NCBI RefSeq assembly: GCF_009017255.1
Contig: NZ_WBZB01000002.1
Span: forward strand, 1-64,000
DNA from: Alkaliphilus serpentinus
GTDB lineage: Bacteria; Bacillota; Clostridia; Peptostreptococcales; Natronincolaceae
Reading direction: 5' to 3'
DNA: 64,000 nt
This document shows, one piece after another, positions 25,672 to 43,947 of the stretch. A model generated the notes under the pieces. It saw nothing but the letters and a program-made list of their open reading frames with translations. It had not been told where the DNA came from and ran no database searches. Position 1 is the first letter of the stretch; the number at the start of each line of letters is the position of its first letter. The position numbers and the translations under genes were made by a program.

Positions 25672-25745
25672 ATATACCCCTCCCCTTAAATTTTATTCCC
25701 TAAGGAATACTGATATACTAAGGGGACAGAAAAACAGGATTTTTT

Positions 25746-25781
25746 TCCAAAAACTAAAGCCAATCTATGATAGATTAGCTT
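25746..25781 (-). terminator. Terminator of the moaA-MOSC operon
   Basis: Minus-strand AAGCTAATCTA / TAGATTGGCTT followed by TAGTTTTTGG. The 5' arm overlaps the stop codon of the MOSC gene. Confidence 0.7.
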
Positions 25782-26194
25782 CTACTTCTGATTATCCCTT
25801 CATCTCCAACACAAACGCTACCCTCATGAAGGATTCTTCCAAAGGCTATCTCATCCCTGAGACTACATGGGTCACCCTTCTTTAATAAAGGACAATCTCT
25901 ATGACAATCTTTGCCAGACTCCTCTACTAGAAAGACTGCATCTCCTACATGAATTTGTACATTTTTTTTGATATTGCCCGGGAAATCGACATCTAATACA
26001 AAGTTTCCTACAAATTTATTATGACAAAATCCTCTTTCAGTACTGTTTTCAATGGTATTATAGCCCCTTACTGATATAAAACTCACCTGTCTAGGTTTAC
26101 TATCATCAAAGGTTCTAGGATTTACATGTATTTCATTAAGGGGGATGAATTTTTTATCTGTGTCCTTAATAAATATATAAGTGATTCTTCCCAT
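25775..26194 (-). CDS. MOSC-domain protein
   Basis: About 139 aa. The C-terminal pattern VGDAVFLVEESGKDCHRDCPLLKKGDPC...GRILHEGSVCVGDEG matches small MOSC (MoCo sulfurase C-terminal) proteins, whose conserved Cys is thought to carry sulfur or bind Moco. The ATG at 26194 lies one base after the moaA stop with GGGGG upstream; a longer frame from 26236 would overlap moaA by 41 bases and is less likely. Position after moaA, under the same riboswitch, supports a molybdenum cofactor role. Confidence 0.78.
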   Translation of the reverse strand: MGRITYIFIKDTDKKFIPLNEIHVNPRTFDDSKPRQVSFISVRGYNTIENSTERGFCHNKFVGNFVLDVDFPGNIKKNVQIHVGDAVFLVEESGKDCHRDCPLLKKGDPCSLRDEIAFGRILHEGSVCVGDEGIIRSRS

Positions 26195-26195
26195 C

Positions 26196-27164
26196 TTATC
26201 CCCCAATTTCCGACATGTTCCTTTTGCTAATCTCATGCCTATTTGAATATAAAAAGTGTCTTTCAGGTTTTTGCATGATTGAATTCTTAAGGACCTCAGC
26301 TATCTCCTGAGGATTGTTTCTAACAACCTGCATAATATCTATTTCATGGTTACTGTGGAGACAGGGCTTCAGCCTTCCATCACTGGTAAGTCTAATTCTA
26401 TTACAGCTTCCACAAAAGTGACTACTGATGGGGTTGATAAAACCAACTCTTCCCTTTCCTTCTGGCAACCGATAATATTCAGCTGGACCTGAAGTCTTTT
26501 CATGGATGGGTATTAATTCTCCAATAGATTTCTTCACCTCATGGTTGGATATAAATCTCTCTGTAGCCCATTGGCTTGCCTCTCCTACCGGCATCAATTC
26601 TATGAATCTTACATCGATTTCGTCCTTCAAGGTTAATTGAGCAAAATCTACTACTTCATCATCATTAAAGCCTCCAATGATAACGGTGTTAAGCTTAATA
26701 GGGGTCATCCCTAAATTTATTGCCTCTTGAATACCATCTAATACCTTATATAGATCCCCACCCCTAGTTATCTCCTTAAACCTATTGGGTTTTAAAGAAT
26801 CAATACTAATGTTTACTCGTTTTAAGCCCGCCCTTTTTAAATCCTTGGCCATATCCTTTAGGAATATTCCATTGGTTGTTAAAGCGATATCGTCAACTCC
26901 ATCAATGGCAGCTACTCCATCTATTAGCTGAAGGATATCCCTTCTCACCAATGGCTCTCCACCAGTTATTCTAATTTTATTAATCCCTAGCTTTGCTCCT
27001 GCTTCAACTATTGATATGATTTCTTCAAAGGTGAGGATTTCCTTATGGAGCTTTTTATTACGAATGCCTTCCTCTGGCATGCAATATTGACATCTTAAAT
27101 TACATAGGTCTGTTATAGATATCCTCATATAATTTATTCTTCTTGAATATATATCCTTCATCAT
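26196..27164 (-). CDS. moaA: GTP 3',8-cyclase (molybdenum cofactor biosynthesis protein A)
   Basis: Radical-SAM enzyme making the first intermediate of molybdopterin from GTP. 322 aa. The N-terminal cluster motif CNLRCQYC, GGEPLVRRDI, the C-terminal second cluster motif (HFCGSCNRIRLTSDGRLKPC) and the terminal Gly-Gly are all present. Its leader at 27193-27345 is a Moco riboswitch with a terminator, so end-product control is expected. It is cotranscribed with the MOSC gene and lies next to fdhD. Confidence 0.97.
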   Translation of the reverse strand: MMKDIYSRRINYMRISITDLCNLRCQYCMPEEGIRNKKLHKEILTFEEIISIVEAGAKLGINKIRITGGEPLVRRDILQLIDGVAAIDGVDDIALTTNGIFLKDMAKDLKRAGLKRVNISIDSLKPNRFKEITRGGDLYKVLDGIQEAINLGMTPIKLNTVIIGGFNDDEVVDFAQLTLKDEIDVRFIELMPVGEASQWATERFISNHEVKKSIGELIPIHEKTSGPAEYYRLPEGKGRVGFINPISSHFCGSCNRIRLTSDGRLKPCLHSNHEIDIMQVVRNNPQEIAEVLKNSIMQKPERHFLYSNRHEISKRNMSEIGG

Positions 27165-27192
27165 CCTTCACCCCTTCATCCTTATACAAGAT

Positions 27193-27225
27193 CCAATATA
27201 AAAGCCAGTCCTTGAAAGGACTGGC
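27193..27225 (-). terminator. Riboswitch expression-platform terminator upstream of moaA
   Basis: Minus-strand GCCAGTCC-TTTCAA-GGACTGGC followed by TTTTATATT lies between the Moco aptamer and the moaA ribosome site. It is a classic transcription-attenuation platform. Confidence 0.85.
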
Positions 27226-27227
27226 GA

Positions 27228-27345
27228 ATTCATCAATTCCAGCTAATTTCCTTTCCAATAGAGGGAGGCAAAAGAATTTCTTCTTTAACCCGTCGGCCAT
27301 TCTTCATAGATGGTGGTCCTTAGAAGGTAAGGCTCGGAAATTTGT
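27228..27345 (-). promoter_or_regulatory. Molybdenum cofactor (Moco RNA motif) riboswitch
   Basis: Conserved blocks occur in order on the minus strand: CCGAGCC, TTACCT, GGACCACC, GGCCGACGGG, and GCCTCCCTCTATTGGAAAGG. The last block nearly matches the E. coli moaA leader. A stem AAAGAA-GAAA-TTCTTT occupies the P3 position, whose presence is usually read as molybdenum rather than tungsten cofactor sensing. The element sits directly before a terminator and moaA. A TATAAT box at 27382-27387 could start the transcript. A 66-aa ORF overlapping this region is not credible. Confidence 0.88.
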
Positions 27346-27399
27346 TATTTTTATAATAATTATTTTTTAACAGTTTTTCTTATTATAGCATTTTTATGC

Positions 27400-28182
27400 T
27401 TAAAATGATACTCTATTTAAGTCATGATATATATTCATTTTCTTACCTCTAGCGAAACCTATTAGAGTAACCCCCAATTCCTTAGCTATACTATAGGTCA
27501 ATTCAGTAGGGGCTGACCTTGAAATTACAACTGGTATTTCCCTCTTGCTGGTTTTTATTATCATCTCAGAGGATATTCTACCGCTGGTAATCAGTAGCTT
27601 ATCTCCCAAGTTTATTTCTTTAAGGATAGCTTCTCCGATTATTTTATCTAGAGCGTTGTGTCTTCCAACATCCTCATGGAATAAAATAATGTTTTTATCG
27701 TCACATAAGCAGCAACTATGAACTCCTCCAGTATTTCTAAAGAGGGTTGACATTTGATTAAATCTACCCACAAGACTGTATAGTTCCTCTAAGGCAATAC
27801 TTACATTCCCTTTAATTTTTTGGGTACCCAATGAATCAAGAACATTGTAGAAAATGGTTCCCTTACCACAGCCGGTTGTAACCGTTCTTTTTCCATAGAG
27901 CTTTTCAGTTATAGCTGAAACTTCTCTTATATTAATATATCCATGTCCTTTTTCTTCATCAATTCGAATATCTATTACATCCTCAATGGATTTTATGAAA
28001 CCCTCTGAGGCTAAAAAGCCTATTAATAGGTAGTCAAGGCCTTTGGGGGTGCAAAGAAGGGTAATAAACTCATTACCGTTTACAAATATGGTAAATGGGT
28101 ACTCTATAACTAGAATATCATCTACCTCATTAACAGTATCTTCAAAGACTTTATGAATTTTAATGGTTTTTACTTCATCCAT
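27400..28182 (-). CDS. fdhD: Formate dehydrogenase accessory sulfurtransferase FdhD
   Basis: Sulfurates the bis-MGD cofactor for insertion into formate dehydrogenase. 260 aa. Family blocks seen: LLIGFLASEGFI, VTTGCGKGTIF, GGVHSCCLCDD (Cys-rich loop), EDVGRHNALDKIIGEA and SGRISSEMI. GGAG lies eight bases before the ATG. It is adjacent to the Moco operon and within 5 kb of its likely client fdhA. Confidence 0.96.
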   Translation of the reverse strand: MDEVKTIKIHKVFEDTVNEVDDILVIEYPFTIFVNGNEFITLLCTPKGLDYLLIGFLASEGFIKSIEDVIDIRIDEEKGHGYINIREVSAITEKLYGKRTVTTGCGKGTIFYNVLDSLGTQKIKGNVSIALEELYSLVGRFNQMSTLFRNTGGVHSCCLCDDKNIILFHEDVGRHNALDKIIGEAILKEINLGDKLLITSGRISSEMIIKTSKREIPVVISRSAPTELTYSIAKELGVTLIGFARGKKMNIYHDLNRVSF

Positions 28183-28233
28183 ATCATCAGCTCCAATGCT
28201 TTACATATATTTATATTATAACATTAGATGAAA

Positions 28234-28321
28234 TTACAATTAATAATTAATAATTAGTAATTTATAATTGGAAATTTGCTAGGCAAATTCTTCATCAATT
28301 CAACATTTAACATTCAACATT
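28234..28321. repeat. Copy of the AATTTGC-hairpin / TTCAACATT repeat
   Basis: ATTAATAATTAGTAATT blocks, a small GGAAATTTGC...GCAAATTC hairpin, then TTCATCAATTCAACATTTAA and a second TTCAACATT. The same order occurs at 5283-5343 and 54050-54218. It lies between divergent fdhD and the ferritin-like gene. Confidence 0.6.
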
Positions 28322-28356
28322 AGATTATATTTTTTATGTCGAAAGGAGTAGTTAAA

Positions 28357-28851
28357 ATGCAAAAATACATAAACATCCTTAAGTATGCCATGGAAATGGA
28401 AAAGCAGGGTCATCATTTTTACAAAACAAATGCTGAAAGATTCTCTTCTGCTACTGCAAAGGAGCTATTTGAAAGACTTGCCGAAGTTGAATTGGATCAT
28501 TATCACTTTTTAGAGGAACAGTTGAATTATTATATAAAGTTTAATCAGCTACAGGATTATAGTTTAGATAGCAACCGTGAAGCAGATCTATTTGATAAAA
28601 GATTTGAAGCTGAGAATATTGAGCAGAGCCTTCACGATTCCTTAACCCCAGACTTAACCATTTTAAGAATGGCCTATCTTATTGAAAGGGATTATGCTGA
28701 ATTCTATAAAAAACAATCTGAGGAAGCAGAGGATAAAAATATCGTAAAGCTTTTTAAAACTCTAGCAACCTGGGAGGAAGGTCACCAGGAGCTTTTCAAA
28801 GCTGAATATGATCGTCGGATGGAGGAGTACATTAATGGACAGTGGGGATAG
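28357..28851 (+). CDS. Ferritin-like (rubrerythrin-type) diiron protein
   Basis: 164-aa four-helix protein. Candidate iron ligands sit in EMEKQGHHFYK, EVELDHYHFLEEQ, LIERDYAEFYKKQ and WEEGHQELFKAEYD, the ExxH-type pairs of the rubrerythrin fold. The C-terminal rubredoxin domain of classic rubrerythrin is missing. The ATG at 28357 is chosen because AAAGGAG precedes it by eight bases. Likely cytosolic peroxide or iron handling in an anaerobe; substrate not provable. Confidence 0.8.
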   Translation: MQKYINILKYAMEMEKQGHHFYKTNAERFSSATAKELFERLAEVELDHYHFLEEQLNYYIKFNQLQDYSLDSNREADLFDKRFEAENIEQSLHDSLTPDLTILRMAYLIERDYAEFYKKQSEEAEDKNIVKLFKTLATWEEGHQELFKAEYDRRMEEYINGQWG

Positions 28852-28878
28852 GGGAGAGAGTCCAATGGCATTTATTAA

Positions 28879-29592
28879 CTATACAGGTAGTAATGTTATT
28901 AGATACCCCCCTGCTACTAAGCTGGCAAAATTGGCTAATACGACATAGGCAAAAACTCTTTGTGGATGATGCTCCTTGACATAAGCCTTAAAGGCAAACC
29001 CTTCCACGATAAATACCCATAGTTCTCCAAAAAAGAGAGAAAATATAAGGTAGCTTTCCCAAGGATAGGAACCATTAAGCCAGATATTTAGTCCTCCTTG
29101 GGTAATGAGATTAATTACAATAAAGGCTAACCAAGACCTTTTATTTCTAAAACCCAGTAAAAAGAATATGAGGCCTTCAATTACAAGGGTTACCATCACC
29201 CTTAGAGAAACAAGTTTAATAGTCCTTGGTAAGGATTTTCCCTCTGTTAAAGATCGATCCTTTAAATTAAGGGTAAATACGTTATTGTAGGTTTTAAGAG
29301 AGTTATCTATTTCTATCTGAAAGCTGGTGTTACCTGAAACTACCTTGATATTATAATTCTTGGTATTCTTCAAATCTTCTAGATAAAAAGCATAGTAACT
29401 TTCTTTCATTTTCTTTGTTTTTCGTCCCTCTACAAAACTACCATTTTCCTCTATGCTTATTACCAAATCTACAGGCGGATTAGGAACAATAATAACGATG
29501 GATGGCGGTTCTGCAGCATTGCCATAGACTTCATAGGAAAATGGAAAAATAAGAACTACTACAAGAAAAAATGTGAATATCCCTTTGTTCAT
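28879..29592 (-). CDS. Uncharacterised membrane protein with an exported N-terminal domain
   Basis: 237 aa. A signal peptide (residues 1-24, FFLVVVLIFPFSYEVYG) leads into a beta-rich, Pro-containing segment of about 95 residues, then four hydrophobic helices between about 128 and 237. I do not recognise the family. It is not obviously part of the adjacent fdh operon, which ends about 400 bases away and runs in the same direction. It is convergent with the ferritin-like gene. Confidence 0.7.
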   Translation of the reverse strand: MNKGIFTFFLVVVLIFPFSYEVYGNAAEPPSIVIIVPNPPVDLVISIEENGSFVEGRKTKKMKESYYAFYLEDLKNTKNYNIKVVSGNTSFQIEIDNSLKTYNNVFTLNLKDRSLTEGKSLPRTIKLVSLRVMVTLVIEGLIFFLLGFRNKRSWLAFIVINLITQGGLNIWLNGSYPWESYLIFSLFFGELWVFIVEGFAFKAYVKEHHPQRVFAYVVLANFASLVAGGYLITLLPV

Positions 29593-29713
29593 GGTTTTGA
29601 TACCCCTTCGATAGATTATATACTTGATTATACCACAATTTCACAGAAGGAACTCTATATCAAGTGAACACTGAGCATAAATAGTTAGTAGGACAGAGGA
29701 GGGTTCTTCATGT

Positions 29714-29949
29714 AAGAACAAAAGCATTTCATGCGTTAACTTTCTATGGTTAAAATGCTTTTGTTTTCCACAGAACCCATGCGTTCCCTAGGACGCTTCG
29801 TTTTCGGTCGTCTCACCGTCTCGACGCCGTTCGTAGCATAGTGTCACTTATTCGTGACACAACTCACCTCTCCTTACTTTAATAAGGGGGTTACCCCCCC
29901 CTTAAAATCCCCCATTTAATAGGAAAAAAGAGAACTTTTTCCTATTAAA
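29714..29949. repeat. Multi-hairpin dispersed repeat, copy 2
   Basis: Shares with copy 1 (38-207) the AAAAGCATTT / AAATGCTTTT, CCCATGCGTT, CCTTA..TAAGG and TTTAATAGG / CCTATTAAA hairpins, in the same order and orientation. It carries an extra block of about 75 bases (roughly 29799-29871) containing the hairpin GTGTCAC-TTATTC-GTGACAC and a GC-rich stretch. It lies downstream of the fdh operon, as copy 1 lies downstream of dnaE. This gap (29593-29999) holds no gene. Confidence 0.75.
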
Positions 29950-29951
29950 CA

Positions 29952-29994
29952 AGAAAAATGCGACAGAGAAAACTGACCGTCCCCTGTCGCATTC
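29952..29994 (-). terminator. Terminator of the nuoE-nuoF-fdhA operon
   Basis: Minus-strand AATGCGACAG / CTGTCGCATT followed by TTTTC. The loop GGGGACGGTC resembles the conserved loop of REP-like palindromes seen in Clostridia, so it may double as such an element. Confidence 0.75.
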
Positions 29995-29999
29995 TTAAC

Positions 30000-32675
30000 T
30001 TATGCTAGTTTTTCAATTTTAACTCCACATACCTTCAGTTCTGGTATTTTCGAATATTTATCTAACACAGAACCGTTGGTTAAAACATTGGCTGCACCCT
30101 CTGCCCAGTGGAAGGGAATAAAGACAACCTTCTCTGAAACAATATCAGTGATTTTGGCCTTCGTCTCGATGGCACCCCTTCTAGATGCAACCTTCACCCT
30201 TTCACCATCATTTATACCCAGCTCTTCAGCTAACTTAGGATGGATTTCTACATAGCTCTCTGGAGCCTTTTGATTTAATCCTTCGGTTTTTCCAGTCATG
30301 GTTCTCGTGTGATATTGATACAATACTCTACCAGTGGTCATAACTAAAGGATACTCCTCGTCGGAAAGCTCTCCTGATGGGGAATAGCTAACGGGCATGA
30401 ATAACCCCACACCCCTTCCACACCTTTCTTGATGAAGGATCTTTGTTCCCGGATGATCCTCCGTTGGACATGGCCACTGAATACCAACAGCATCGATTCT
30501 ATCATAGGTTATTCCAGCATATTGGGGAGTAACCATCCTGATCTCTTCAAATATTTCTGAGGGATTATTGTATTCCTTGTTGTATCCAAGCTTATTCATA
30601 AGCTCCATCAGAATTACCCAGTCTGCTTTAGCAACTCCAGGTGCATTAACGGCTTTTCTAATTTTTTGAACCCTTCTTTCAGAATTTACAAAGGTTCCAT
30701 CCTTCTCTGCAAAGGCAGCAGCAGGTAAAACCACATCAGCCAACTCTGCTGTTTCTGTTAAGAAGATGTCCTGGACCACTAGGAAGGTCTTCTTTAGGGC
30801 CTTTTCAACATGGGCAGTATCAGGATCAGATACCATTGGATTTTCTCCCATAATATACAGGACCTTGATGTCTCCGTGTTCAGCCCCATGCATAATCTCT
30901 GGAATTGTCAAACCAACCTCCTTTGATAAGTCAACTCCCCAAGCCTTTTCAAATTTTTCTACAACTTCAGCCTTTGTAACGGGCTGATATCCGGGGTATA
31001 CATTTGGTAGGGCCCCCATATCACAGGCACCCTGAACATTGTTTTGTCCCCTTAAAGGATTCACACCTGTCCCTTCTCTTCCAAGGTTCCCAGTTAATAG
31101 CGCAAGGTTAGATAAGCTCATTACATTTTCTGTTCCATTATGATGCTGAGTTATACCCATGCAGTAGACAATACTTCCCCTTTCGGCTTGGGCATAGATT
31201 CTAGCAGCCCTTCTAATATCTTCTGGATCAACCCCACAAACCTCTGCAACCTTCTCAGGAGTATAACCCTCAACCAGCTTAGCAGTTTCTTCGAAATTCT
31301 CAGTTTTTTCATTAATATATTCCTTATCTTGAAGGCCTTCTTCAATGATTACATTCATCATGGCATTTGATAGGGCAATACTGGTACCGGGCTTAATTTT
31401 CAAGAATACATCAGCGTATTTGGCCAACTCAATTTCCCGAGGATCAGCAACGATTAGTTTTGTTCCCTTTTTAAGGGCTTGTTTAATTTGGGCCCCTATA
31501 ACAGGGTGATTTTCTGTTGTATTAGATCCTGTAAGGAATATAGCATCCGCCTTCTTCACTTCACGAATACTATTTGTCATAGCTCCACTACCTAGTGTGA
31601 TTGCAAGACCTGCAACCGTTGAACTATGTCAGAGACGGGCACAGTGGTCTACATTATTGGTGCCAACCACAGCCCTCATCAGCTTTTGAAGAAGATAGTT
31701 TTCCTCTGTTGTACATCTAGCTGAGGATAAACCCGCAACTGAGTTGGGTCCTAAGGTTTCTTTAGCTTCCGCTATTTTACTTGAAATTAATTCATAGGCC
31801 TCTTCCCAGGTTCCTTCTTCTAGCTTCCCGTTTTTCCTAATTAGAGGAGCCTTCAATCTATCTGGATGACCAATAAAGTTATAGGCGAATTTCCCCTTTA
31901 CACAAAGGAGCCCTTCATTGGAGGGACCCATGGCGGGTTGAATTTCTACAATCTTGTTATCCTTAACCAATAGATCCATCTGACATCCTACACCACAATA
32001 GGAGCAGGTGGTTCTAACTGGGGAAGTCTCCCAATATCTAAACTTTTCTTTACTCTTGGGCACCAAGGCCCCTACTGGACAAACGGAAACACAGTTGCCA
32101 CAGGAAACACAGGTGGATTCTTCTAAACCCTGATTAAAGGGTGTAGCTATGTGGGTTGGGAAACCCCTTTCTGCAAAGCCTATGGCATCGGTGCATTGTA
32201 GTTGAGAACAGACATATACACATTTGCCACATAGTATACATTTATTTTGATCGCTATAATAGAAGGGGTTGCTATTATCTATTTCAAACTCCTTTTTCGC
32301 ACCACCATAGGAGCTTTCCTTTACATCATACTGAAAGCATAGGTCCTGCAAAGCACATCTTCCTGCTTGCTGACAGGTTAAACAGTCCAATGGATGGTTT
32401 GCCAACAATAAATCAAGAATTTCCTTTCGTGCTTCTACAACACCTTCGCTTTCAGTTTCAACCTCCATCCCCTCAAAGACTGGTGTGGTACAGGCAGTAG
32501 GTAGATTCCTGCCTCCTTTTACCTCAACAGTACAGATTCTACAAGATCCATGGGGTCTTAGCCTTGGATCATGACAAAAGGTTGGAATTTTAATACCAAT
32601 TTTATTTGCAGCTTCCAGTATGGTTGTATCCTTTTCAACCTTTACTTCAAAGCCATTTATTTTTACGGTAATCAT
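30000..32675 (-). CDS. fdhA: Selenocysteine formate dehydrogenase, NuoG-fused catalytic subunit
   Basis: One 891-residue gene read through the in-frame UGA at 31629-31631 (residue 349, Sec). Without readthrough it would be split into 348 and 526 aa. N-terminal NuoG-like clusters: C34/C45/C48/C62 ([2Fe-2S]), H94/C98/C101/C107, then C146-156 and C189-199 (two [4Fe-4S]). The molybdopterin oxidoreductase part starts with C224/C227/C231/C258. The active site reads NNVDHCARL-Sec-HSSTVAGLA, as in known Sec enzymes. It is the third gene after NuoE- and NuoF-like subunits, an arrangement associated with NAD/ferredoxin-linked electron-bifurcating formate dehydrogenases. It should oxidise formate or reduce CO2 in the cytosol. 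Confidence 0.95.
31599..31617 (-). promoter_or_regulatory. Bacterial SECIS element in fdhA
   Basis: Starting 11 bases after the UGA, GGTTGCA-GGTCT-TGCAATC forms a seven-pair stem (one G-U) with the GGUC apical loop recognised by SelB. Spacing and the first twelve bases match the E. coli fdhF SECIS as I remember it. Confidence 0.92.
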
Positions 32676-35631: not shown

Positions 35632-36825
35632 TCAACCTTTTTTTAAAAAAGGTGCAATTGTTCTGTCAAGGATACCATTTACATAGGATATCAACACTCC
35701 ATAGTTGACTATAGGTACACCAGCTCTTTCTGCCACCCCAATTCTATAAAGCATCTCTTTGCGATTTTGCATACAGGACCCACAATGGACCACAAGGTCA
35801 AAGCCCTCTAGGTTGTCTGGAAAGGCAGTTCCTTGAACCCATTGGAAATCTAATTTCTTTCCACTAATCTGTTCCAACCATTTGGGAATCTTTACGGTAC
35901 CTATATCCTCATCCTGCCTATGATGGCTGCATCCCTCTGCAATGAGAACCTTAGCTCCATCTCGTAATTTTCTTATTCCATTGGTGCCCTCCACCAAGGT
36001 TTTTAGATCTCCCTTATGGTTGGCATAAATAATTGAGAAGGAGGTTAGGGGGATATCCTTTGGCAACTTTTCATTTACCTCTTTAAAGGCTTGGGAATCG
36101 GTTATAACCAATTTAGGCCCATTCTTCAGATGACTCAAGGTTTCCTCCAACTGAGTTTCCTTACAAACCGTCATAACGGCATCGGCATCTAATATGGCCC
36201 TGATCACCTGCACCTGAGGCAATATCATTCTGCCCTTCGGTGCAGAAGAATCTATTGGGGTTACCAAGACAATCATATCTCCTTTTTCAACTAAGGTATC
36301 CAATAAGGGTTTTTCTGCCGTAGAAGGAGCAACATCAATTATGAGCCTCTTTAGCTCCTCAATACCCTCTTTATATTTTGCACTGAGGCTGATTGTTGGC
36401 AACCCTGCATAATGGATTTCTTTATCGTTCGTGTTTACTAAATCAATTTTATTTACAGCAATAATCGTAGGAATTTTTCTTTCCTTCATAATGGCTATAA
36501 GCTCTTCTTCGAAGTTGCCTATTGCTATTTGAGGATCCGTAACAATGATGGCCACATCAGTTTTGTTAAGAACTTCCTTGGTTTTCTGTATTCTGAGGTT
36601 ACCCACAATCCCTTCATCATCTATGCCAGCTGTATCGATGATCAGCACAGGACCAATTGGCAATATCTCCATGGCCTTATAAACAGGGTCCGTAGTGGTG
36701 CCTGCCACCTCTGATACCAAGGCAATATCTTGATTGGTCAAGGCATTAATCAGGCTAGATTTTCCTGCATTTCTTCTGCCAAATATAGCAATGTGCAATC
36801 TATTTCCTCTAGGGGTCTGGTTCAT
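35632..36825 (-). CDS. hydF: [FeFe]-hydrogenase maturation GTPase HydF
   Basis: 397 aa. N-terminal TrmE/Era-like GTPase with Walker A GRRNAGKSSLINAL (about residues 16-29), DTAGIDD and NKID. The C-terminal scaffold domain holds the Fe-S ligands in EGCSHHRQ (CxHH) and HCGSCMQNR (CxxC). It carries the [2Fe] subcluster precursor to apo-HydA. It shares one base with the upstream hydE stop and closes the hyd operon. Confidence 0.96.
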   Translation of the reverse strand: MNQTPRGNRLHIAIFGRRNAGKSSLINALTNQDIALVSEVAGTTTDPVYKAMEILPIGPVLIIDTAGIDDEGIVGNLRIQKTKEVLNKTDVAIIVTDPQIAIGNFEEELIAIMKERKIPTIIAVNKIDLVNTNDKEIHYAGLPTISLSAKYKEGIEELKRLIIDVAPSTAEKPLLDTLVEKGDMIVLVTPIDSSAPKGRMILPQVQVIRAILDADAVMTVCKETQLEETLSHLKNGPKLVITDSQAFKEVNEKLPKDIPLTSFSIIYANHKGDLKTLVEGTNGIRKLRDGAKVLIAEGCSHHRQDEDIGTVKIPKWLEQISGKKLDFQWVQGTAFPDNLEGFDLVVHCGSCMQNRKEMLYRIGVAERAGVPIVNYGVLISYVNGILDRTIAPFLKKG

Positions 36826-38132
36826 TATATCCCCTCCTTACTGGTAACTTTTAAATACTTGGGTAGCCTTCTATTGGCCCCTTTAACTGCATCTATGGCT
36901 GATTGGATATCAATCATGTTTTTGTTTTTATATAGTTGATAGCTTTTTTTATATTTATCAGGAGTTGAAATTAGCATAATGGTGTTGGCACCAACCTCCA
37001 GGGCCTTCCTCTGACCATCAGCATCAATTGAAGCCAAGGCTGTGGTTGCTGGTAGAAATACATTCTTACATACAATTCTAGTTACTGCTATGGCCTTTAA
37101 GGTCATCTCCACGCTGCCAGTTGGTAAATTTTCATAGGGTGTACCCGGCGCAGGAATGAAGGGTCCAATACCAATCATATGAATACCCATATCTCTATAA
37201 TAAACAATATCATCGGCTATATCCTCAACGGTTTGCCCAGGTAGACCAATCATATTGCCAGAACCATTAACATAACCCAATTCCTTAAGCCATTTAGCAC
37301 ATTGTAGTCTTTGGTCAAAATCATTATCTGGATGGATTCTTTCAAAAACCTCTTGATTGGTGGTTTCAATTTTCAATAGAAAATTATTAGCTCCCGCTTC
37401 TCTAAACTTCAGGTAATCTTCCCGACTACGTTCACCGATACTGAGGGTAATCCCCATTTTCGTTTCTTTTTTAATCCTTCTGAGGATGCTACAGATTTTT
37501 TCTGTGGTGTAGTAATCATCTTCTCCCGACTGTAGTATTACCGTCTTTATCCCTAGACTTAAAATATCCTTAACTGCCTCCAATATCTCATCCTCCTCCA
37601 TACGATAGCGGTGGGGAAGATCACAGCCCTTTCTAATACCACAGTAATTACAGCTCTTTTTACAGTAGTTAGAAAACTCAATAGCCGCTCTAATCTCTAC
37701 TATATCTCCAACAATTTCCCTTCTAAGTCGGTCGGCAACCCCATAGAGAGTTTCAATTTCCTTCTTGGATTCAGTCTTAAGAAGAAGAAGGATATCCTCT
37801 TTGGTAAGGTCCATTCCCAACTCTATCTTATTCATAACTACTTGGAAGGCTGTTGAGATATTTTGATTTTTTAAAGCCTCCATTAACCCTGTTAGTTTTC
37901 TGGTTTCATATGGATGTATTGAAAATTTAATATTGGTATTCTCTAAAGATTCCTCTGCACTTTTCTTGTCTATTTCTTCTAAAAGAATAGAGGTACTACA
38001 AATGGATCCATATTGACTGGGGGTTGGAACAAGGTCAACAACTAGACCCCTTTCCCTCAGTATAGTATCTGCCTTCAGCATGTGATTGGTAGAACTGCAT
38101 ACAATTATAATTCTTTTAATTTGGGTAGTCAT
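36825..38132 (-). CDS. hydE: [FeFe]-hydrogenase maturase HydE with an N-terminal DUF3343 domain
   Basis: 435 aa against about 350 for usual HydE. The extra ~85 N-terminal residues (IIIVCSSTNHMLKADTILRE ... LVPTPSQYGSICSTS) resemble DUF3343, a putative Se/S-carrier-like domain, with cysteines at 12 and 45. The radical-SAM part carries C157/C161/C164 (CKKSCNYC) and the HydE-type GSGNMIGLPGQTVEDIADDI segment. HydE works on the HydG-derived Fe(CO)2(CN)-cysteine species. The fusion suggests sulfur delivery or partner binding, which is inference. Lies between hydG and hydF. Confidence 0.93.
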   Translation of the reverse strand: MTTQIKRIIIVCSSTNHMLKADTILRERGLVVDLVPTPSQYGSICSTSILLEEIDKKSAEESLENTNIKFSIHPYETRKLTGLMEALKNQNISTAFQVVMNKIELGMDLTKEDILLLLKTESKKEIETLYGVADRLRREIVGDIVEIRAAIEFSNYCKKSCNYCGIRKGCDLPHRYRMEEDEILEAVKDILSLGIKTVILQSGEDDYYTTEKICSILRRIKKETKMGITLSIGERSREDYLKFREAGANNFLLKIETTNQEVFERIHPDNDFDQRLQCAKWLKELGYVNGSGNMIGLPGQTVEDIADDIVYYRDMGIHMIGIGPFIPAPGTPYENLPTGSVEMTLKAIAVTRIVCKNVFLPATTALASIDADGQRKALEVGANTIMLISTPDKYKKSYQLYKNKNMIDIQSAIDAVKGANRRLPKYLKVTSKEGI

Positions 38133-38153
38133 CGATGGCCTCCTTAACCTTGT

Positions 38154-39527
38154 TTAGAAGAAAAGATCCCGCTTACCTTTTTCTGTTTCCTTTAGCTTTT
38201 CTTTTGTTAACTCTTTAATATTTTCATTTTCAATCTCTTCAAGGGACTTTTCTATCAGTTGGTCTCCTATTTCTTTTAATTCTTCATCTCCAAAGTCCAG
38301 TAAATGCTCCTTAAGGGTTAGAATGGCATTAGATTGACAGAATTCATGGATTTCTGCTTCCTTTGCTAAGCCCATAAAGACCTCTCCAGTTCTTTTAGCC
38401 CGATAGCAGGCAGTACAGAAGCTGGGTAAATGTCCTTGATTACAGATTACTTTAAGAACCTCCTTTAAGCTTCTTTCGTCGCTGGTTTCAAACTGTTCGG
38501 CATCATGGTCCTCATTGTGATAACCTCCAGGATTGGTCTTAGACCCCGCTGATGCCTGAGAAACCCCTAGGTCAAAGAGCTCATCCCTTAGTTTACTAGG
38601 TTCCCTAGTTGATAATATAATTCCAGTGTAGGGTAGGGTTAATCTGTATACGGCTATGATTTTTTTGAAGTTCTCATCGGTTACTTCATAGGGAGTTTCC
38701 TTAATGGCAGCGTCAATGGCTGGTCTTAGTCTGGGAACGGAAACTGTATGGGGACCAACATTAAGGGTTTCATCCATATACTGGGCATGCATAAGGGTTG
38801 CCAAAACATCAAAGCGATAATCGTATAACCCTAGTAAAACCCCAATTCCTAAATCATCTATTCCTGCTTCAAAAGCCCTGTTAATGGCCAATAATCGATA
38901 GTCATAATCCTTTTTTAAACCTGAGGGATGCATTTGTCGATAGGTGTCCCGATGATAGGTTTCTTGAAATATTTGATAGGTTCCTATTCCCGCCCCCTTC
39001 AAGGTACGGAAATCCTCCACTGACATAGGTGCAGCATTTACATTAATTCTTCTTATGTCTGTATGATCATATACTGCCTTTAGGCTTTCAACAATATGGG
39101 TAATGGTGGTGTATCTTGGATCTTCACCACAGACCATTAGAATTCTTTTATGACCCTGTTCCTCTATTGTTTTAGCCTCTTCCACTACCTCATCTATATT
39201 TAATGTCTTTCTATGAAGATGCTTGTTGTCTACTCTAAATCCGCAATACAAACAGTTATTTATACAATGATTACTGGTATATAGAGGTGCAAAAACTACG
39301 ATCCTTTTACCATAGATGGTATTTTTAACTTCCCTAGCAGCATGGTACAAATCCTCCATCAAATCTAGATCCTCCAACTGAAGCAATGCCGCAGCCTCCT
39401 CTAGGCTTAGTCCTTTACCCCTTCTGCCTTTATTAATAATTTCAATAATCTCTGCTCTTTTAAAGTTTTTGCCTTGATGAAGAAGTTTTTCAATTTTCAC
39501 TTCATTTATTATTTTTAAAGTATCCAT
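38154..39527 (-). CDS. hydG: [FeFe]-hydrogenase maturase HydG (tyrosine lyase)
   Basis: 457-aa radical-SAM enzyme that splits tyrosine to give CO and cyanide bound to iron. SAM cluster C88/C92/C95 (CINNCLYC). A C-terminal auxiliary-cluster motif CTACYRAKRTGEVF...FC (CX2CX22C) is present and intact, which separates it from the ThiH homologue. GPHTVSVPRLRPA is conserved. It lies between the regulator-like small gene and hydE. Confidence 0.96.
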   Translation of the reverse strand: MDTLKIINEVKIEKLLHQGKNFKRAEIIEIINKGRRGKGLSLEEAAALLQLEDLDLMEDLYHAAREVKNTIYGKRIVVFAPLYTSNHCINNCLYCGFRVDNKHLHRKTLNIDEVVEEAKTIEEQGHKRILMVCGEDPRYTTITHIVESLKAVYDHTDIRRINVNAAPMSVEDFRTLKGAGIGTYQIFQETYHRDTYRQMHPSGLKKDYDYRLLAINRAFEAGIDDLGIGVLLGLYDYRFDVLATLMHAQYMDETLNVGPHTVSVPRLRPAIDAAIKETPYEVTDENFKKIIAVYRLTLPYTGIILSTREPSKLRDELFDLGVSQASAGSKTNPGGYHNEDHDAEQFETSDERSLKEVLKVICNQGHLPSFCTACYRAKRTGEVFMGLAKEAEIHEFCQSNAILTLKEHLLDFGDEELKEIGDQLIEKSLEEIENENIKELTKEKLKETEKGKRDLFF

Positions 39528-39548
39528 TTTTTTACCTCCTTTATATTA

Positions 39549-39794
39549 CTACTTTTTAGTTAATACACTTTTTACTGTAACTCCCGATAATCTTCCCAGT
39601 TTGCCAGTAAGACCTCCAATTTCATCGGTGGTACCATCAATTAAAACCGATATGATGGATACCCCCTTTTCTTTGTAGGGAACCCCCATCCTTCCGATGA
39701 TGATATCTCCATATTTACTTAACAAATCATTAACCTCATGTATATTACTCTTTTCTTCAACTATGATGGCCACAACACCTATACGCTTTTCCAT
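39549..39794 (-). CDS. TM1266-type iron-only hydrogenase system regulator
   Basis: 81-aa ferredoxin-like (ACT/NikR-C-like) small protein starting MEKRIGVVAIIVEE. GGGGAG precedes this ATG by nine bases; the longer frame from 39890 runs through a terminator hairpin and is not credible. The family is linked to FeFe-hydrogenase operons and called a putative regulator; its ligand is unknown. Confidence 0.82.
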   Translation of the reverse strand: MEKRIGVVAIIVEEKSNIHEVNDLLSKYGDIIIGRMGVPYKEKGVSIISVLIDGTTDEIGGLTGKLGRLSGVTVKSVLTKK

Positions 39795-39833
39795 TCCATT
39801 ACACTCCCCTTGTTGAATAATCCTTTGGTAAGA

Positions 39834-39867
39834 AGTAAAAGGAGCCCTCAAAAAGTAGGAGGGCTCC
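39834..39867 (-). terminator. Internal terminator between hydA and the maturase genes
   Basis: Minus-strand GGAGCCCTC-loop-GAGGGCTCC followed by TTTTACTTCTT. It would lower expression of the maturases relative to the structural subunits. Confidence 0.75.
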
Positions 39868-39996
39868 AATATTTCACTAATCCTTCTCACCTTTTGCTCA
39901 GTTATACTTCACAATCAGTTACCTATATTCAGTTCTTTAAATCCTTTCCTCTTGATGAATCCTAATCCATCCTTCAGAAAATCTTATATCTCTTAA

Positions 39997-41736
39997 TTAG
40001 TATTTATCTCTAACTGTATAATGGGTGTGAAGAAGCTTATGGGCAAGATGACTGTTGGGCTTTAATAGGAAGTTTTCATATAACTCCAGCACAGCTTTAT
40101 TCTTGTGGGATTTACGTTCCTTCATGGTTTGATCCTCTTCATATAAAGCCTTTGCCCGTTCCACCCTTAGGTCAATGTCTATTTTATCCTTAGCAGCTAC
40201 ATGGGGTTGACCTCCCCCCGTTACACAACCACCGCTGCAGCCCATTACTTCGATGAAATCATATTCCTTTTCACCTGACTTAATCATGTCTAATAGTCTA
40301 CTGGCATTGGCAGTACCATGGGCAATGGCTATTTTAATAGTCTTCCCACCAAGAACCAGTTCAGCCTCTCTAATTCCTTCTGTTCCTCTTATTTCTGTAT
40401 AGTCAATTTTAGCAAGCTCTTTATCCTCTAGAATATCTGCCACTGTCCTTAATGCCGCCTCCATAACTCCTCCTGTGGCACCAAAAATCACTCCTGCTCC
40501 AGCATAGCCACTAAGCTCGTGGTCAAACCGCTCATCCGGAAGCTTATGAAAGTCTATCCTAGCTTGCTTAATCATCTTAGCCATTTCTCTAGTGGTTATA
40601 ACGGCATCTACATCCCTTAACCCATCAACAGCCAATTCTGGTCTGGCAGCTTCATTCTTCTTAGAGGTACATGGCATCACTGATACAACAAAAATCTTTT
40701 TAGGGTCAATTTTTTGTCTTTCAGCATAATAGGATTTAATTAATGCGCCATTCATTTGTTGAGGAGATTTACAAGTCGATAGATTTGGTAAAAATTCAGG
40801 ATAATTAAACTCACAGAATCTTACCCAACCAGGAGAACAAGAGGTGATCATAGGAAGAACCCCATTGTTCTGAATTCTATCAAGCATTTCATGGCCTTCC
40901 TCCATTATGGTTACATCGGCTGCAAAGTTTGTATCAAACACCTTATGGAAGCCTAAACGTTTAAGGGCTGCCACCATCTTGCCGGTTACCCTTGTACCTA
41001 TGGGTAATCCCATTTCTTCGCCAAGGGCTGCTCTAACTGCAGGGGCCGTTTGTACAACCACATGGGTATCTGGGTTTTCCAAGGCATCCCATACCCTGTC
41101 AATGTCTTCCTTTTCCTTTAAGGCTGCCACTGGACAGGCTACAACACACTGTCCACAGAATATACAGGCTGTATCCCCCATTGATTTATTAAAGGCAGGG
41201 GCGACTTCAGTATTAAAGCCTCTATTGGTAAATTCAAGAATTCCAATTTTTTGCACATTTTTACAGGTGCTAACGCATCTTCCACATAGTATGCACTTAC
41301 TGTTGTCCCTTACGATTGATGGTGATAAATCATCAATCACTGGCTGAGTTTTTTCACCTTCAAAAGGGATAGCATCTATATTTAATTCCTCTGTTAGCTT
41401 CTGTAGCTCACAGTTTCTATTTCTTGAACAGGTTAAGCATTCTCTATTATGGTTTGATAAGATTAATTGAAGGGTGGACTTTCTAACATCCCTTAGTTTT
41501 TTAGTATTTGTTTTTACAGACATCCCTTCAGCAACAGGTAGAACACAGGATGCTTGAATATTTCTATAGCCCTCTACCTCCACCATACACACTCTACAGG
41601 CACCAACTTCATTGATTCCCTTCAGAAAACATAGGGAAGGTATTTCAACGCCTACCTTTCTAGCTGCTTCCAGGACAGTAAAATTACTTGGTACTTCTAC
41701 TTTTATACCATCAATGGTCAAGGATACTTTTTCCAT
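39997..41736 (-). CDS. hydA: [FeFe]-hydrogenase catalytic subunit HydA
   Basis: 579 aa. N-terminal [2Fe-2S] ferredoxin (CFLKGINEVGACRVC), an NHNRECLTCSRNRNC cluster, two [4Fe-4S] motifs (CILCGRCVSTC; CIFCGQCVVAC). H-cluster motifs L1 TSCSPGWVRFCE, L2 MPCTSKKNEAARPE and L3 EVMGCSGGCVTGGGQP are all intact. The C-terminal small-subunit-like tail ends HTHYTVRDKY. With the NuoE/NuoF-like subunits it should form a cytosolic NAD/ferredoxin-linked bifurcating hydrogenase, which is inferred from subunit composition. Confidence 0.97.
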   Translation of the reverse strand: MEKVSLTIDGIKVEVPSNFTVLEAARKVGVEIPSLCFLKGINEVGACRVCMVEVEGYRNIQASCVLPVAEGMSVKTNTKKLRDVRKSTLQLILSNHNRECLTCSRNRNCELQKLTEELNIDAIPFEGEKTQPVIDDLSPSIVRDNSKCILCGRCVSTCKNVQKIGILEFTNRGFNTEVAPAFNKSMGDTACIFCGQCVVACPVAALKEKEDIDRVWDALENPDTHVVVQTAPAVRAALGEEMGLPIGTRVTGKMVAALKRLGFHKVFDTNFAADVTIMEEGHEMLDRIQNNGVLPMITSCSPGWVRFCEFNYPEFLPNLSTCKSPQQMNGALIKSYYAERQKIDPKKIFVVSVMPCTSKKNEAARPELAVDGLRDVDAVITTREMAKMIKQARIDFHKLPDERFDHELSGYAGAGVIFGATGGVMEAALRTVADILEDKELAKIDYTEIRGTEGIREAELVLGGKTIKIAIAHGTANASRLLDMIKSGEKEYDFIEVMGCSGGCVTGGGQPHVAAKDKIDIDLRVERAKALYEEDQTMKERKSHKNKAVLELYENFLLKPNSHLAHKLLHTHYTVRDKY

Positions 41737-41761
41737 TAGTGTTTACTCCTTTCGATATAGA

Positions 41762-43549
41762 CTATATTACAATCGCCTTGAATGGACATTTATCTAGGCA
41801 AGCTCCACACTTAATACACTTTGCTTCATCAATTCTATGGAGTTCCTTCTTCTCTCCGATGATGGCATCAACTGGACAAGCTTTTTTACATAATGTACAT
41901 CCTTTACATGCATCCGTAATTGTGTAGGATAATAAAGCTTGACATACTCCAGCAGGACATTTCTTGTCTATGATATGGGCTTCATATTCATGCTTAAAAT
42001 AGTGTAAAGTTGATAATACAGGGTTTGGAGCAGTTTGTCCCAATCCACATAGGGATGCAGACTTGATGGTATTGGCCAAGTCCTCTAGCCTTCCAATATC
42101 CTCTATTTCACCCTTACCTTCGATGATTTTGTCTAAAAGCTCCAGCATTCTCTTTGTTCCTATTCTACAGGGAGCACACTTACCACAGGATTCATCTACC
42201 GTAAAGTCTAAGAAGAATCTTGCGATATCCACCATACAGTTGTCTTCATCCATTACAATCATTCCACCGGAACCCATCATTGAACCTAAGGCAATTAGAT
42301 TATCATAGTCTATTGGAGTATCAAGGTGTGCTGCTGGGATACATCCTCCCGAGGGCCCTCCCGTTTGAACGGCTTTAAAGGCCTTTCCATTGGGGATTCC
42401 TCCGCCAACCTCATAAATTACTTCCCTTAGGGTTGTTCCCATAGGTATTTCCAATAAACCGGTATTATTGATTTTTCCGCCAAGGGCAAAAACCTTTGTA
42501 CCCTTAGACTTTTCTGTTCCGATACCTGCAAACCAGTCTGCTCCCTTTAACATAATCTGAGGGACGTTTGCATAGGTCTCTACGTTATTTAGAAGGGTTG
42601 GCTTATTCCATATTCCCTTATGGGCTGGGAATGGTGGTCTAGGTCTTGGCATTCCCCTCTTACCTTCTATTGAATTGATTAAGGCAGTTTCCTCACCACA
42701 AACAAAGGCTCCTGCTCCTAAACGGATCTCCAAGTCAAAATTAAAATCTGTTCCGAAAATGTTTTTTCCTAAAAGCCCATATTCTTTTGCTGCTTCTATG
42801 GCAATTTGAAGACGTTTAACGGCTATTGGATACTCTGCTCTAATGTATACATAACCCATATCTGCCCCAACTGCATATCCAGCTATAGCCATGGCTTCTA
42901 TGATGGCATGGGGGTCTCCCTCAAGTACAGAACGATCCATAAAAGCCCCTGGGTCTCCCTCGTCGGCATTACAAGCAACGTATTTTTGATCGCCGGTAGC
43001 CTTAGCTGTAAACTCCCACTTCAATCCGCTGGGGAAGCCTCCGCCGCCTCTACCCCTTAAACCAGATTTTTTCATAACATCAATTACTTCTTCAGGGGTC
43101 ATTTCTGTTAATACCTTTGCTAAGGCTTTGTAGCCATCAAAGGCAATGTATTCATCTATTTCCTCAGGGTTTATAACTCCACAATTTCTTAAAGCTACTC
43201 TTTGCTGCTTTTGGTAAAAGCCTACTTCATCTATCGACTTAACCTTACCCTCTTCAACAGCATCCTTAAAGAGTAAACTAGTTACAATTCTTCCCTTTAG
43301 TAGATGCTCTTCTACAATTCGTTCTACATCTTTTTCTTCAATTCTGCTGTAGAAGGCTCCCTCTGGGTATACGATTACAATTGGCCCCGCCTCACATAAT
43401 CCAAAGCATCCAGTCTTTATAACCTTTACTTCCGTCTCTAACTGGTGCTTTTTCAGCTCCGTATCCATTTTATCAATAATCTTCTGACATCCAGAAGAAG
43501 TACATCCTGTTCCTCCACACACTAACACGTGGGATCTGAATAATTCCAT
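41762..43549 (-). CDS. hydB: NuoF-like flavoprotein subunit of the bifurcating hydrogenase (HydB)
   Basis: 595 aa. Thioredoxin-like [2Fe-2S] domain at the N-terminus (CGGTGCTSSGC), NADH/FMN core (GLRGRGGGGFPSGLKW; GAGAFVCGEETALINS), [4Fe-4S] SCGKCAPCRIGT and a C-terminal 2[4Fe-4S] ferredoxin (CKGCTLCKKACPV; CIKCGACLDKCPF). Its start is coupled to the upstream stop (TAATG). The formate dehydrogenase paralog at 32718-34628 is very similar across the core. It is the likely site of NAD(H) reaction and bifurcation. Confidence 0.95.
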   Translation of the reverse strand: MELFRSHVLVCGGTGCTSSGCQKIIDKMDTELKKHQLETEVKVIKTGCFGLCEAGPIVIVYPEGAFYSRIEEKDVERIVEEHLLKGRIVTSLLFKDAVEEGKVKSIDEVGFYQKQQRVALRNCGVINPEEIDEYIAFDGYKALAKVLTEMTPEEVIDVMKKSGLRGRGGGGFPSGLKWEFTAKATGDQKYVACNADEGDPGAFMDRSVLEGDPHAIIEAMAIAGYAVGADMGYVYIRAEYPIAVKRLQIAIEAAKEYGLLGKNIFGTDFNFDLEIRLGAGAFVCGEETALINSIEGKRGMPRPRPPFPAHKGIWNKPTLLNNVETYANVPQIMLKGADWFAGIGTEKSKGTKVFALGGKINNTGLLEIPMGTTLREVIYEVGGGIPNGKAFKAVQTGGPSGGCIPAAHLDTPIDYDNLIALGSMMGSGGMIVMDEDNCMVDIARFFLDFTVDESCGKCAPCRIGTKRMLELLDKIIEGKGEIEDIGRLEDLANTIKSASLCGLGQTAPNPVLSTLHYFKHEYEAHIIDKKCPAGVCQALLSYTITDACKGCTLCKKACPVDAIIGEKKELHRIDEAKCIKCGACLDKCPFKAIVI

Positions 43550-43929
43550 TATTTAACCCCCTTATCCTCATAAGCTCCAATAGTATATTCATCCACCACT
43601 TTACCATTTACAATATGATCTGCGATGACTTTTTTAGCCTTATCTGCTGTCATTTCAACATAGGTCGTCTTTCCTTCGCCTTCCTTATAAACTTCTATGA
43701 TAGGTTCTAACCTACATACACCTATACATCCCGTTTGGGTAATAATTACATCCTCTAGATTTCGTTTTTGAGCTTCCTCTAAAAGGGCCATTAAAACAGG
43801 TCTAGCTCCTGCTGATATACCACAGGTGGCCATTCCAACCACTATTCTTGTTCCCTTTCTATCAGTCCTTAAATTAACCTTTTCGAGGGCTGCTTGCCGG
43901 ATTTTTTCCAGTTCTTGAATAGATTTCAT
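43549..43929 (-). CDS. (2Fe-2S) ferredoxin-domain thioredoxin-like subunit of the hydrogenase
   Basis: 126 aa. C36 in MATCGISAGAR and C68/C72 in TQTGCIGVC suggest a thioredoxin-like [2Fe-2S] site. Similar small genes occur between the NuoE- and NuoF-like genes of multisubunit hydrogenases. In the fdh operon this gene is missing, but its first 21 codons survive fused to the NuoF-like gene. Lies 18 bases after the NuoE-like gene. Confidence 0.85.
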   Translation of the reverse strand: MKSIQELEKIRQAALEKVNLRTDRKGTRIVVGMATCGISAGARPVLMALLEEAQKRNLEDVIITQTGCIGVCRLEPIIEVYKEGEGKTTYVEMTADKAKKVIADHIVNGKVVDEYTIGAYEDKGVK

Positions 43930-43947
43930 TTCAATACCTCCCCTATA

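What the first reader, a model, noticed from the sequence alone, without database searches (positions are those of the whole stretch)
27193..27345. Moco riboswitch with a transcription-terminator platform in front of moaA-MOSC
The leader carries the conserved blocks of the Moco RNA motif, including GCCTCCC..TTGGAAAGG, followed by a perfect hairpin plus T-run. A P3-like stem favours a molybdenum rather than tungsten reader. It couples cofactor synthesis to a Mo/W formate dehydrogenase 3 kb away.
Basis: partly seen in the sequence, partly recalled or inferred. Interest (0 to 1): 0.75.

Follow-up and report, generated by a model that had tools for sequence, protein, structure and literature searches.

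The report
Tungsten-type Moco riboswitch before moaA
This is a known kind of RNA switch that probably turns down the first gene of molybdenum/tungsten cofactor synthesis; its shape and its genome point to tungsten rather than, as first thought, molybdenum.

Summary
The leader on the minus strand before moaA-MOSC is a real Moco RNA (Rfam RF01055, 74.7 bits, threshold 36), followed by a perfect 9-bp hairpin with a T-run. The draft genome fits: three RF01055 copies, all P3-less, before moaA, moeA-moeA-MOSC and a tupABC-like operon; one TupA match, no ModA match, three aldehyde-ferredoxin-oxidoreductase-family genes. Four xanthine-dehydrogenase-family genes keep molybdenum open. Likely mechanism: an OFF switch by transcription termination. 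The terminator's 5' strand UCCUUUC can pair with the aptamer's GAAAGGA; in this and related genomes CCTTT occurs in 35 of 76 aptamer-linked terminators against 2 of 183 others in the same loci, but not clearly in a second phylum (1 of 12). FDH lies upstream, so any coupling is metabolic, not in cis. Side result: P3 predicts tungstate or molybdate transporters only loosely in that second phylum. A new member of a known kind.

The parts
27382..27390 (-). extended -10 promoter-like sequence TGCTATAAT, 30 nt upstream of the aptamer, after the fdhD stop
   Evidence: TATAAT with TG; -35 only 3 of 6. A -10-like hexamer lies within 75 nt upstream of 106 of 116 RF01055 copies against 214 of 540 control windows. 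Consensus match only; the tool's two-hexamer scan did not list it, and found fewer sites than its shuffles (11 against 15.8)
27232..27351 (-). Moco RNA aptamer (RF01055), P3-less
   Evidence: 74.7 bits, E 3.3e-16, model 1-135, P3 positions deleted
27336..27342 (-). P1 5' strand AAUUUCC
27245..27251 (-). P1 3' strand GGAAAUU
27249..27255 (-). GAAAGGA, aptamer side of the proposed antiterminator; overlaps P5, the junction AAA and P1
   Evidence: prediction
27214..27220 (-). UCCUUUC, terminator side of the proposed antiterminator
   Evidence: prediction; terminator 5' arm with the aptamer segment -9.6 kcal/mol against a shuffled mean of -4.0, 1 of 200 shuffles as good
27204..27225 (-). terminator hairpin (9 bp)
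27194..27203 (-). T-rich tract TTTTATATTG after the hairpin
26196..27164 (-). moaA (GTP 3',8-cyclase)
   Evidence: TIGR02666 387.5 bits, cut-off 284
25775..26236 (-). MOSC-domain protein (weak by profile)
   Evidence: NF011069 residues 47-146, E 3.5e-8 (32.9 bits, cut-off 457); no Pfam hit at 0.001; BLASTP E 7e-9, 24% identity, to the clear MOSC protein of the moeA operon
27400..28182 (-). fdhD, upstream of the RNA
30000..32675 (-). formate dehydrogenase alpha subunit, two ORFs in one frame through a TGA at 31629-31631 (probable selenocysteine)

Best explanation
A P3-less (Tuco-class) Moco riboswitch that lowers moaA-MOSC expression by transcription termination when the cell has enough tungsten cofactor (or, less likely, molybdenum cofactor). 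Ligand-bound aptamer holds P1 closed, so the strand GAAAGGA at its base is not free; the newly made strand UCCUUUC then folds into its own terminator hairpin and transcription stops before moaA. Without ligand, GAAAGGA can capture UCCUUUC, the terminator cannot close, and moaA is read. Shown here by computation: the aptamer, the absence of P3, the terminator, the complementarity, the set of three RNAs in the genome. Shown elsewhere: control by Moco supply of the E. coli relative (abstract of PMC2408646). Inferred: ligand identity, P1 closure on binding, the antiterminator in the cell, OFF rather than ON.
For: RF01055 full-length match. No P3 and the P3-less = Tuco proposal. Own genome: three RF01055 copies, all P3-less, before moaA-MOSC, moeA-moeA(PBP)-MOSC and a tupABC-like operon; no ModA match; one TupA match, behind an RNA; three AFOR_C genes. 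In 60 genomes (own and 59 relatives) TupA lies within 3 kb behind an RF01055 copy in 28 of 39 cases, ModA in 2 of 23. Terminator with compensatory changes. CCTTT in the terminator 5' arm and loop in 35 of 76 aptamer-linked terminators against 2 of 183 terminator-like sites elsewhere in the same loci; at least one such in 18 of 20 genera. Folding energies: with the transcript grown to 27212 the free optimum is an antiterminator-type fold at -30.4, with P1 forced -29.9, nearly equal; with the hairpin complete (27204) P1 plus terminator is -42.7 against -32.2 with the antiterminator forced.
Against: Ligand never tested. Four MoCoBD_1 (xanthine-dehydrogenase family) genes suggest molybdenum use. 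PMC13328260 (passages), citing others, takes two MoeA copies as a sign of both cofactors; two are here. AFOR_C is no proof of tungsten: the control search rings in E. coli, which that paper says is not known to use tungsten. P3 is a leaky guide: in another phylum 6 of 24 TupA-linked RNAs had P3 and 5 of 17 ModA-linked RNAs lacked it, one of each unclear. TupA (261 bits, cut-off 400), TupB (156, cut-off 320) and TupC (122, cut-off 400; its best profile is WtpC) are below NCBIfam cut-offs; so were all TupA matches in both samples. ModA absence is from a draft of 83 contigs, 99.75% complete. CCTTT did not clearly replicate in the other phylum (1 of 12, CCTT 3 of 12), and related leaders are not independent. 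40 of 116 copies had no detected terminator; 32 of 76 linked terminators do not pass 5% against shuffles, among them the own tup copy.
Confidence: 0.75

Rival explanations
1. Same switch, but the ligand in the cell is molybdenum cofactor, or both cofactors are bound.
For: Four xanthine-dehydrogenase-family genes; two MoeA genes; P3-less RNAs also precede ModA in 5 of 17 ModA-linked cases in another phylum and 2 of 23 ModA genes in the 60 genomes. Three P3-less copies have a MoCoBD (xanthine-dehydrogenase-like) gene first; the one scanned is a molybdopterin-dependent aldehyde oxidoreductase.
Against: No ModA match in the genome; tungstate-transporter-like genes under a sibling RNA; three AFOR_C genes; no P3.
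Confidence: 0.2
2. A Moco RNA acting on translation, with the hairpin an ordinary or accidental terminator.
For: E. coli moaA is described as controlled through a ribosome binding site in P1 (PMC2408646, section 5); 40 of 116 copies show no terminator.
Against: The likely moaA ribosome binding site (AAGGGGTGAAGG just before the start) lies beyond the hairpin, outside P1. The hairpin covaries in 16 moaA leaders and carries the complement of the aptamer core. A 2025 re-analysis of RNA-seq reports termination even for the E. coli Moco riboswitch (PMC12121620, passages).
Confidence: 0.05
3. Chance resemblance; not a functional riboswitch.
For: None found.
Against: E 3.3e-16, two further copies in the genome, and 16 of 116 RF01055 copies in 60 genomes have moaA as first gene, this one included.
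Confidence: 0.01

Closest known systems
Moco RNA motif / Molybdenum-Tungsten riboswitch (Rfam RF01055), P3-less 'Tuco' form of Regulski et al. 2008 (PMC2408646)
   Same: Full covariance-model match, conserved core, GAAA loop in P4, before moaA, no P3; P3-less forms and terminator platforms are both described in 2008
   Different: Nothing structural. The set moaA, moeA, tupABC-like in one genome and the GAAAGGA/UCCUUUC antiterminator are details worked out here for this clade; the word 'antiterminator' does not occur in the main text of PMC2408646
E. coli moaA Moco riboswitch
   Same: Family and target gene
   Different: E. coli has P3, its reporter is not affected by tungstate, and it is described as holding the ribosome binding site in P1 (PMC2408646, sections 5 and 11)

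Membership tests
Moco RNA (RF01055) | covariance-model score above the gathering threshold | tested here: met
   74.7 against 36 bits
Moco RNA (RF01055) | conserved core blocks (CCGAG, CUAAG, GAAA loop, GCCUCCC, UUGGAAAGG) and stems P1, P2, P4, P5 | tested here: met
   alignment (a few pairs not standard); invariant columns
Moco RNA (RF01055) | lies before cofactor synthesis, transport or user genes | tested here: met
   moaA-MOSC directly downstream
Moco RNA (RF01055) | expression responds to cofactor supply | not testable with these tools
   needs reporter or RNA 3'-end data
P3-less 'Tuco' subclass | no P3 stem between P2 and P4 | tested here: met
   model P3 positions deleted, 5-nt gap in the fold
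P3-less 'Tuco' subclass | organism carries tungsten genes | tested here: met
   TupABC-like operon (below curated cut-offs) and three AFOR_C genes; no ModA match; but four MoCoBD_1 genes
P3-less 'Tuco' subclass | binds Tuco, not Moco | not testable with these tools
   direct binding was not shown in PMC2408646, which says the cofactors are too unstable
Transcription-terminating riboswitch | intrinsic terminator between aptamer and gene, mutually exclusive with an antiterminator | tested here: inconclusive
   terminator met; antiterminator predicted but not clearly replicated in another phylum

The most novel reading that the evidence does not exclude
In this order of Clostridia the P3-less RNAs form a tungsten-cofactor regulon in which a strand of the ligand core itself (GGAAAGG) is the antiterminator, so binding and read-out are one step. 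The regulon also holds substitutes for tungsten enzymes (an aldehyde-dehydrogenase-family gene in three genomes, one of them scanned as P5C dehydrogenase; molybdopterin-dependent aldehyde oxidoreductase) and surface-anchored proteins with a sulfite-oxidase-like domain: a metal-economy switch rather than simple feedback on cofactor synthesis.
Probability: 0.3. Interest if true: 0.5.

Novelty: new member of a known kind. Interest (0 to 1): 0.22.

Why it matters
It is an ordinary, well-formed member of a known class. Its use is as a test bed: the genome has three P3-less copies on three steps of one pathway, one tungstate-transporter-like operon and no ModA match, so the question left open in 2008, whether P3-less RNAs read tungsten cofactor, could be tested by 3'-end mapping with tungstate or molybdate. 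The side result that P3 only loosely separates tungstate- from molybdate-transporter operons in another phylum is a caution for annotation by P3 alone.

Tried and rejected
Regulation of FDH by this RNA in cis: rejected by gene order. Translation control: disfavoured, see rivals. Replication of the CCTTT signal in another phylum: failed or underpowered (12 terminators among 41 loci). A -35 box: none convincing. Hit length as a stand-in for P3: length >= 130 alone gives p 0.06, so I read the folds by eye. Two copies with 3-bp hairpins (G140, G135) were set aside; four were classed against the raw helix count because the fold had mispaired P2 or P4 (G172 as without P3; G073, G158:C2 and G121:C21 as with P3). 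Merging pairs that look near-identical by eye gives p 0.015.

Rows dropped before counts; 2 of 41 TupA rows (second fragments) and 8 below-cut-off ModA rows of 31, leaving 39 and 23; 155 RNAs used, being the 150 listed rows plus 5 rows; the listing was cut ('more matches are not listed'), so adjacency counts are lower bounds; two TupA rows (a second fragment and a 25-bit row) and the below-cut-off ModA rows were left out, leaving 73 and 74. The 116 copies include two below the gathering score (G038:C27, G018:C81). In one search, five of 116 copies showed three helices and two showed one; by reading, four of the five are artefacts of where the fold was cut or of a mispaired P2, and G018:C81, G019:C1:1918827 and G006:C4:402876 have a real third hairpin: 113 of 116 without P3. 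Gene names behind the 116 copies rest on BLASTP clusters of which one or a few members were scanned.

Full report
Observation. At gathering thresholds the window has a single Rfam match: RF01055 (Moco RNA), minus strand, 27351-27232, 74.7 bits against 36, E 3.3e-16, full length. The hairpin GCCAGTCCTTTCAAGGACTGGC with TTTTATATTG is at 27225-27204; such hairpins are not rare by themselves (5 found in 25700-30000, 3.2 +/- 2.0 in shuffles). moaA starts at 27164 (TIGR02666 387.5 bits). The second gene is a weak but supported MOSC protein.

P3. In the cmscan alignment the positions of the P3 hairpin are deleted, and in the fold P2 and P4 are 5 nt apart. The other two RF01055 copies of the genome also lack it. 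In 60 genomes (own and 59 relatives) 39 had RF01055, 116 copies in all, two of them below the gathering score; by my reading of folds 113 of 116 lack P3.

Metal evidence in the genome. The three RNAs precede moaA-MOSC, two moeA genes plus MOSC, and a tupABC-like operon. ModA gave 0 matches, TupA 1 (261 bits, below the curated cut-off of 400, as were all TupA matches in both samples; TupB and TupC are below theirs too), AFOR_C 3. PF00384 gave a single match, the formate dehydrogenase of this window, with an in-frame TGA (context CARL-U-HS, TGA at 31629-31631). Against a tungsten-only reading, MoCoBD_1 gave 4 matches, there are two MoeA genes, and AFOR_C also occurs in E. coli (control). The genome is a draft (83 contigs, 99.75% complete), so absence of ModA is not final. 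Among the 60 genomes, those with the RNA mostly have TupA (32 of 39 against 1 of 21 without it) and AFOR_C (36 of 39 against 3 of 21), less so ModA (19 of 39 against 3 of 21) (not corrected for kinship). TupA genes lie within 3 kb behind an RNA in 28 of 39 cases, ModA in 2 of 23. The first gene behind the 116 copies is most often of the TupA (26), MoaA (16) or MoeA (16) cluster.

How far P3 can be trusted. In 119 genomes of another phylum (that of L049, Pelotomaculum), searches placed RNAs, ModA and TupA. Of 24 listed RNAs with TupA within 3 kb behind, 17 lack P3, 6 have it, 1 is unclear; of 17 for ModA, 5 lack it, 11 have it, 1 is unclear (Fisher p 0.011 with the unclear ones left out; 0.015 with near-identical pairs merged; 0.06 by hit length alone). 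The trend of 2008 holds but is leaky, so P3 alone does not settle the metal here.

Mechanism. 76 of 116 copies have a terminator-like hairpin between aptamer and first ORF. In 35 of 76 the 5' arm plus loop contains CCTTT, complement of the conserved AAAGG, against 2 of 183 terminator-like sites elsewhere in the same loci and a shuffled mean of 1.7; 18 of 20 genera with such a terminator have at least one. The predicted duplex is -8.5 kcal/mol on average against -4.5 for shuffled arms; 44 of 76 reach 5% one by one, 32 do not. For the window copy it is -9.6 against -4.0 (1 of 200 shuffles). The own moeA copy has -5.0 (5%), the own tup copy -8.7 (14%, not significant). Folding of growing transcripts gives a near balance at 27212 (-30.4 free, an antiterminator-type fold; -29.9 with P1) and a clear win for the terminator once complete (-42.7 against -32.2). 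So without ligand the choice would rest on timing, and ligand on P1 would favour the terminator; ViennaRNA has no ligand, tertiary or kinetic term, so this is a plausibility argument. In 16 moaA leaders, aptamer and terminator stems show a double compensatory change in 20 of 35 pairs, while the inner AGTCC of the terminator is the same in 13-15 of 16, as expected if it has a second partner. In the other phylum only 12 of 41 loci gave a terminator, with CCTTT in 1 and CCTT in 3: not replicated.

Promoter. TGCTATAAT at 27390-27382 sits 30 nt before the aptamer and after the fdhD stop. A -10-like hexamer is found before 106 of 116 copies against 214 of 540 control windows. The -35 match is poor (3 of 6), and the scan did not list this site.

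Formate dehydrogenase. FDH (35120-30000) and fdhD lie upstream of the RNA, with an opposite-strand gene between. The switch can govern FDH only through cofactor supply. FDH is the only PF00384 match of the genome, so it may be a main client beside the AFOR_C and MoCoBD_1 proteins (inference).

Literature. PMC12121620 (passages) reports termination at the E. coli Moco riboswitch. PMC5651825 and PMC6239172 (passages) report Moco RNAs in acetogens. PMC13328260 (passages) uses TupA and ModA as markers and has no 'riboswitch' in its text.

Verdict. A genuine P3-less Moco riboswitch with a terminator platform: known kind, new member. Among named genome contigs its MoaA is nearest to Alkaliphilus peptidifermentans (73% identity, where records very near the window may be left out; family Natronincolaceae).

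Noticed in passing
window 31629-31631 (-): In-frame TGA in the formate dehydrogenase alpha subunit in the context CARL-U-HS; probable selenocysteine. It is the only PF00384 match of the genome.
   Followed up: partly
window 35632-44421 (-): [FeFe] hydrogenase group A6 with NuoE/NuoF-like subunits and HydE, HydF, HydG maturases next to an FDH with its own NuoE/NuoF-like subunits.
   Followed up: no
window 28879-29592 (-): 237-aa ORF between FDH and fdhD with no NCBIfam or Pfam match at 0.001.
   Followed up: no
L149, L194, L202 (G045, G002, G008): P3-less Moco RNAs directly before an aldehyde-dehydrogenase-family gene (BLASTP cluster of 3; the L194 member, the one scanned, is TIGR01236, L-glutamate gamma-semialdehyde dehydrogenase), which as far as I recall needs no Mo or W cofactor.
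   Followed up: partly
L145, L189 (G005), L161 (G027), L196 (G039), L223 (G044): P3-less Moco RNAs, tandem in G005, before large proteins of one cluster, mostly next to an S-layer-homology protein. The two scanned (L161, L196) have a sulfite-oxidase-like (Oxidored_molyb) domain and a propeller: possibly surface-anchored Mo/W enzymes.
   Followed up: partly
L167, L207 (G005): P3-less Moco RNAs before large subtilases, one with many Kelch repeats; no evident Mo/W link.
   Followed up: no
L144, L209, L138, L204, L139, L160 (G010, G018; one genus): Two 1.6-Mb genomes with 10 and 7 Moco RNAs but no AFOR_C match; copies precede S-layer, phosphatase, Ig-like, methyltransferase and transporter genes. 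The only two ModA genes found behind an RNA in the 60 genomes are here too.
   Followed up: partly
L137, L192, L152, L215, L219, L175, L184: P3-less RNAs before FecCD / Peripla_BP_2 transporter genes, some with DUF364 (families scanned in L137, L175, L215 and L123, the rest by cluster); resembles, from memory, MolABC-type molybdate/tungstate importers.
   Followed up: partly
G005:C1:2358681/2359020, G015:C1:946101/946442, G018:C271:2077/2341; G121:C21:6509-8237: Divergent pairs of Moco RNAs back to back, and in G121 three RNAs in a row on one strand and two on the other.
   Followed up: no
L225, L226 (G019, G006): 139-nt RF01055 copies of 41.7 and 40.6 bits with a P3-like hairpin, before a ferredoxin-type gene and, in L225 as scanned, a MoCF_biosynth protein, in genomes whose other copies lack P3.
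   Followed up: partly
phylum sample, L266-L306: P3 separates TupA- from ModA-linked RNAs only loosely (17:6 against 5:11, two unclear set aside), looser than the near-perfect split reported in 2008.
   Followed up: yes
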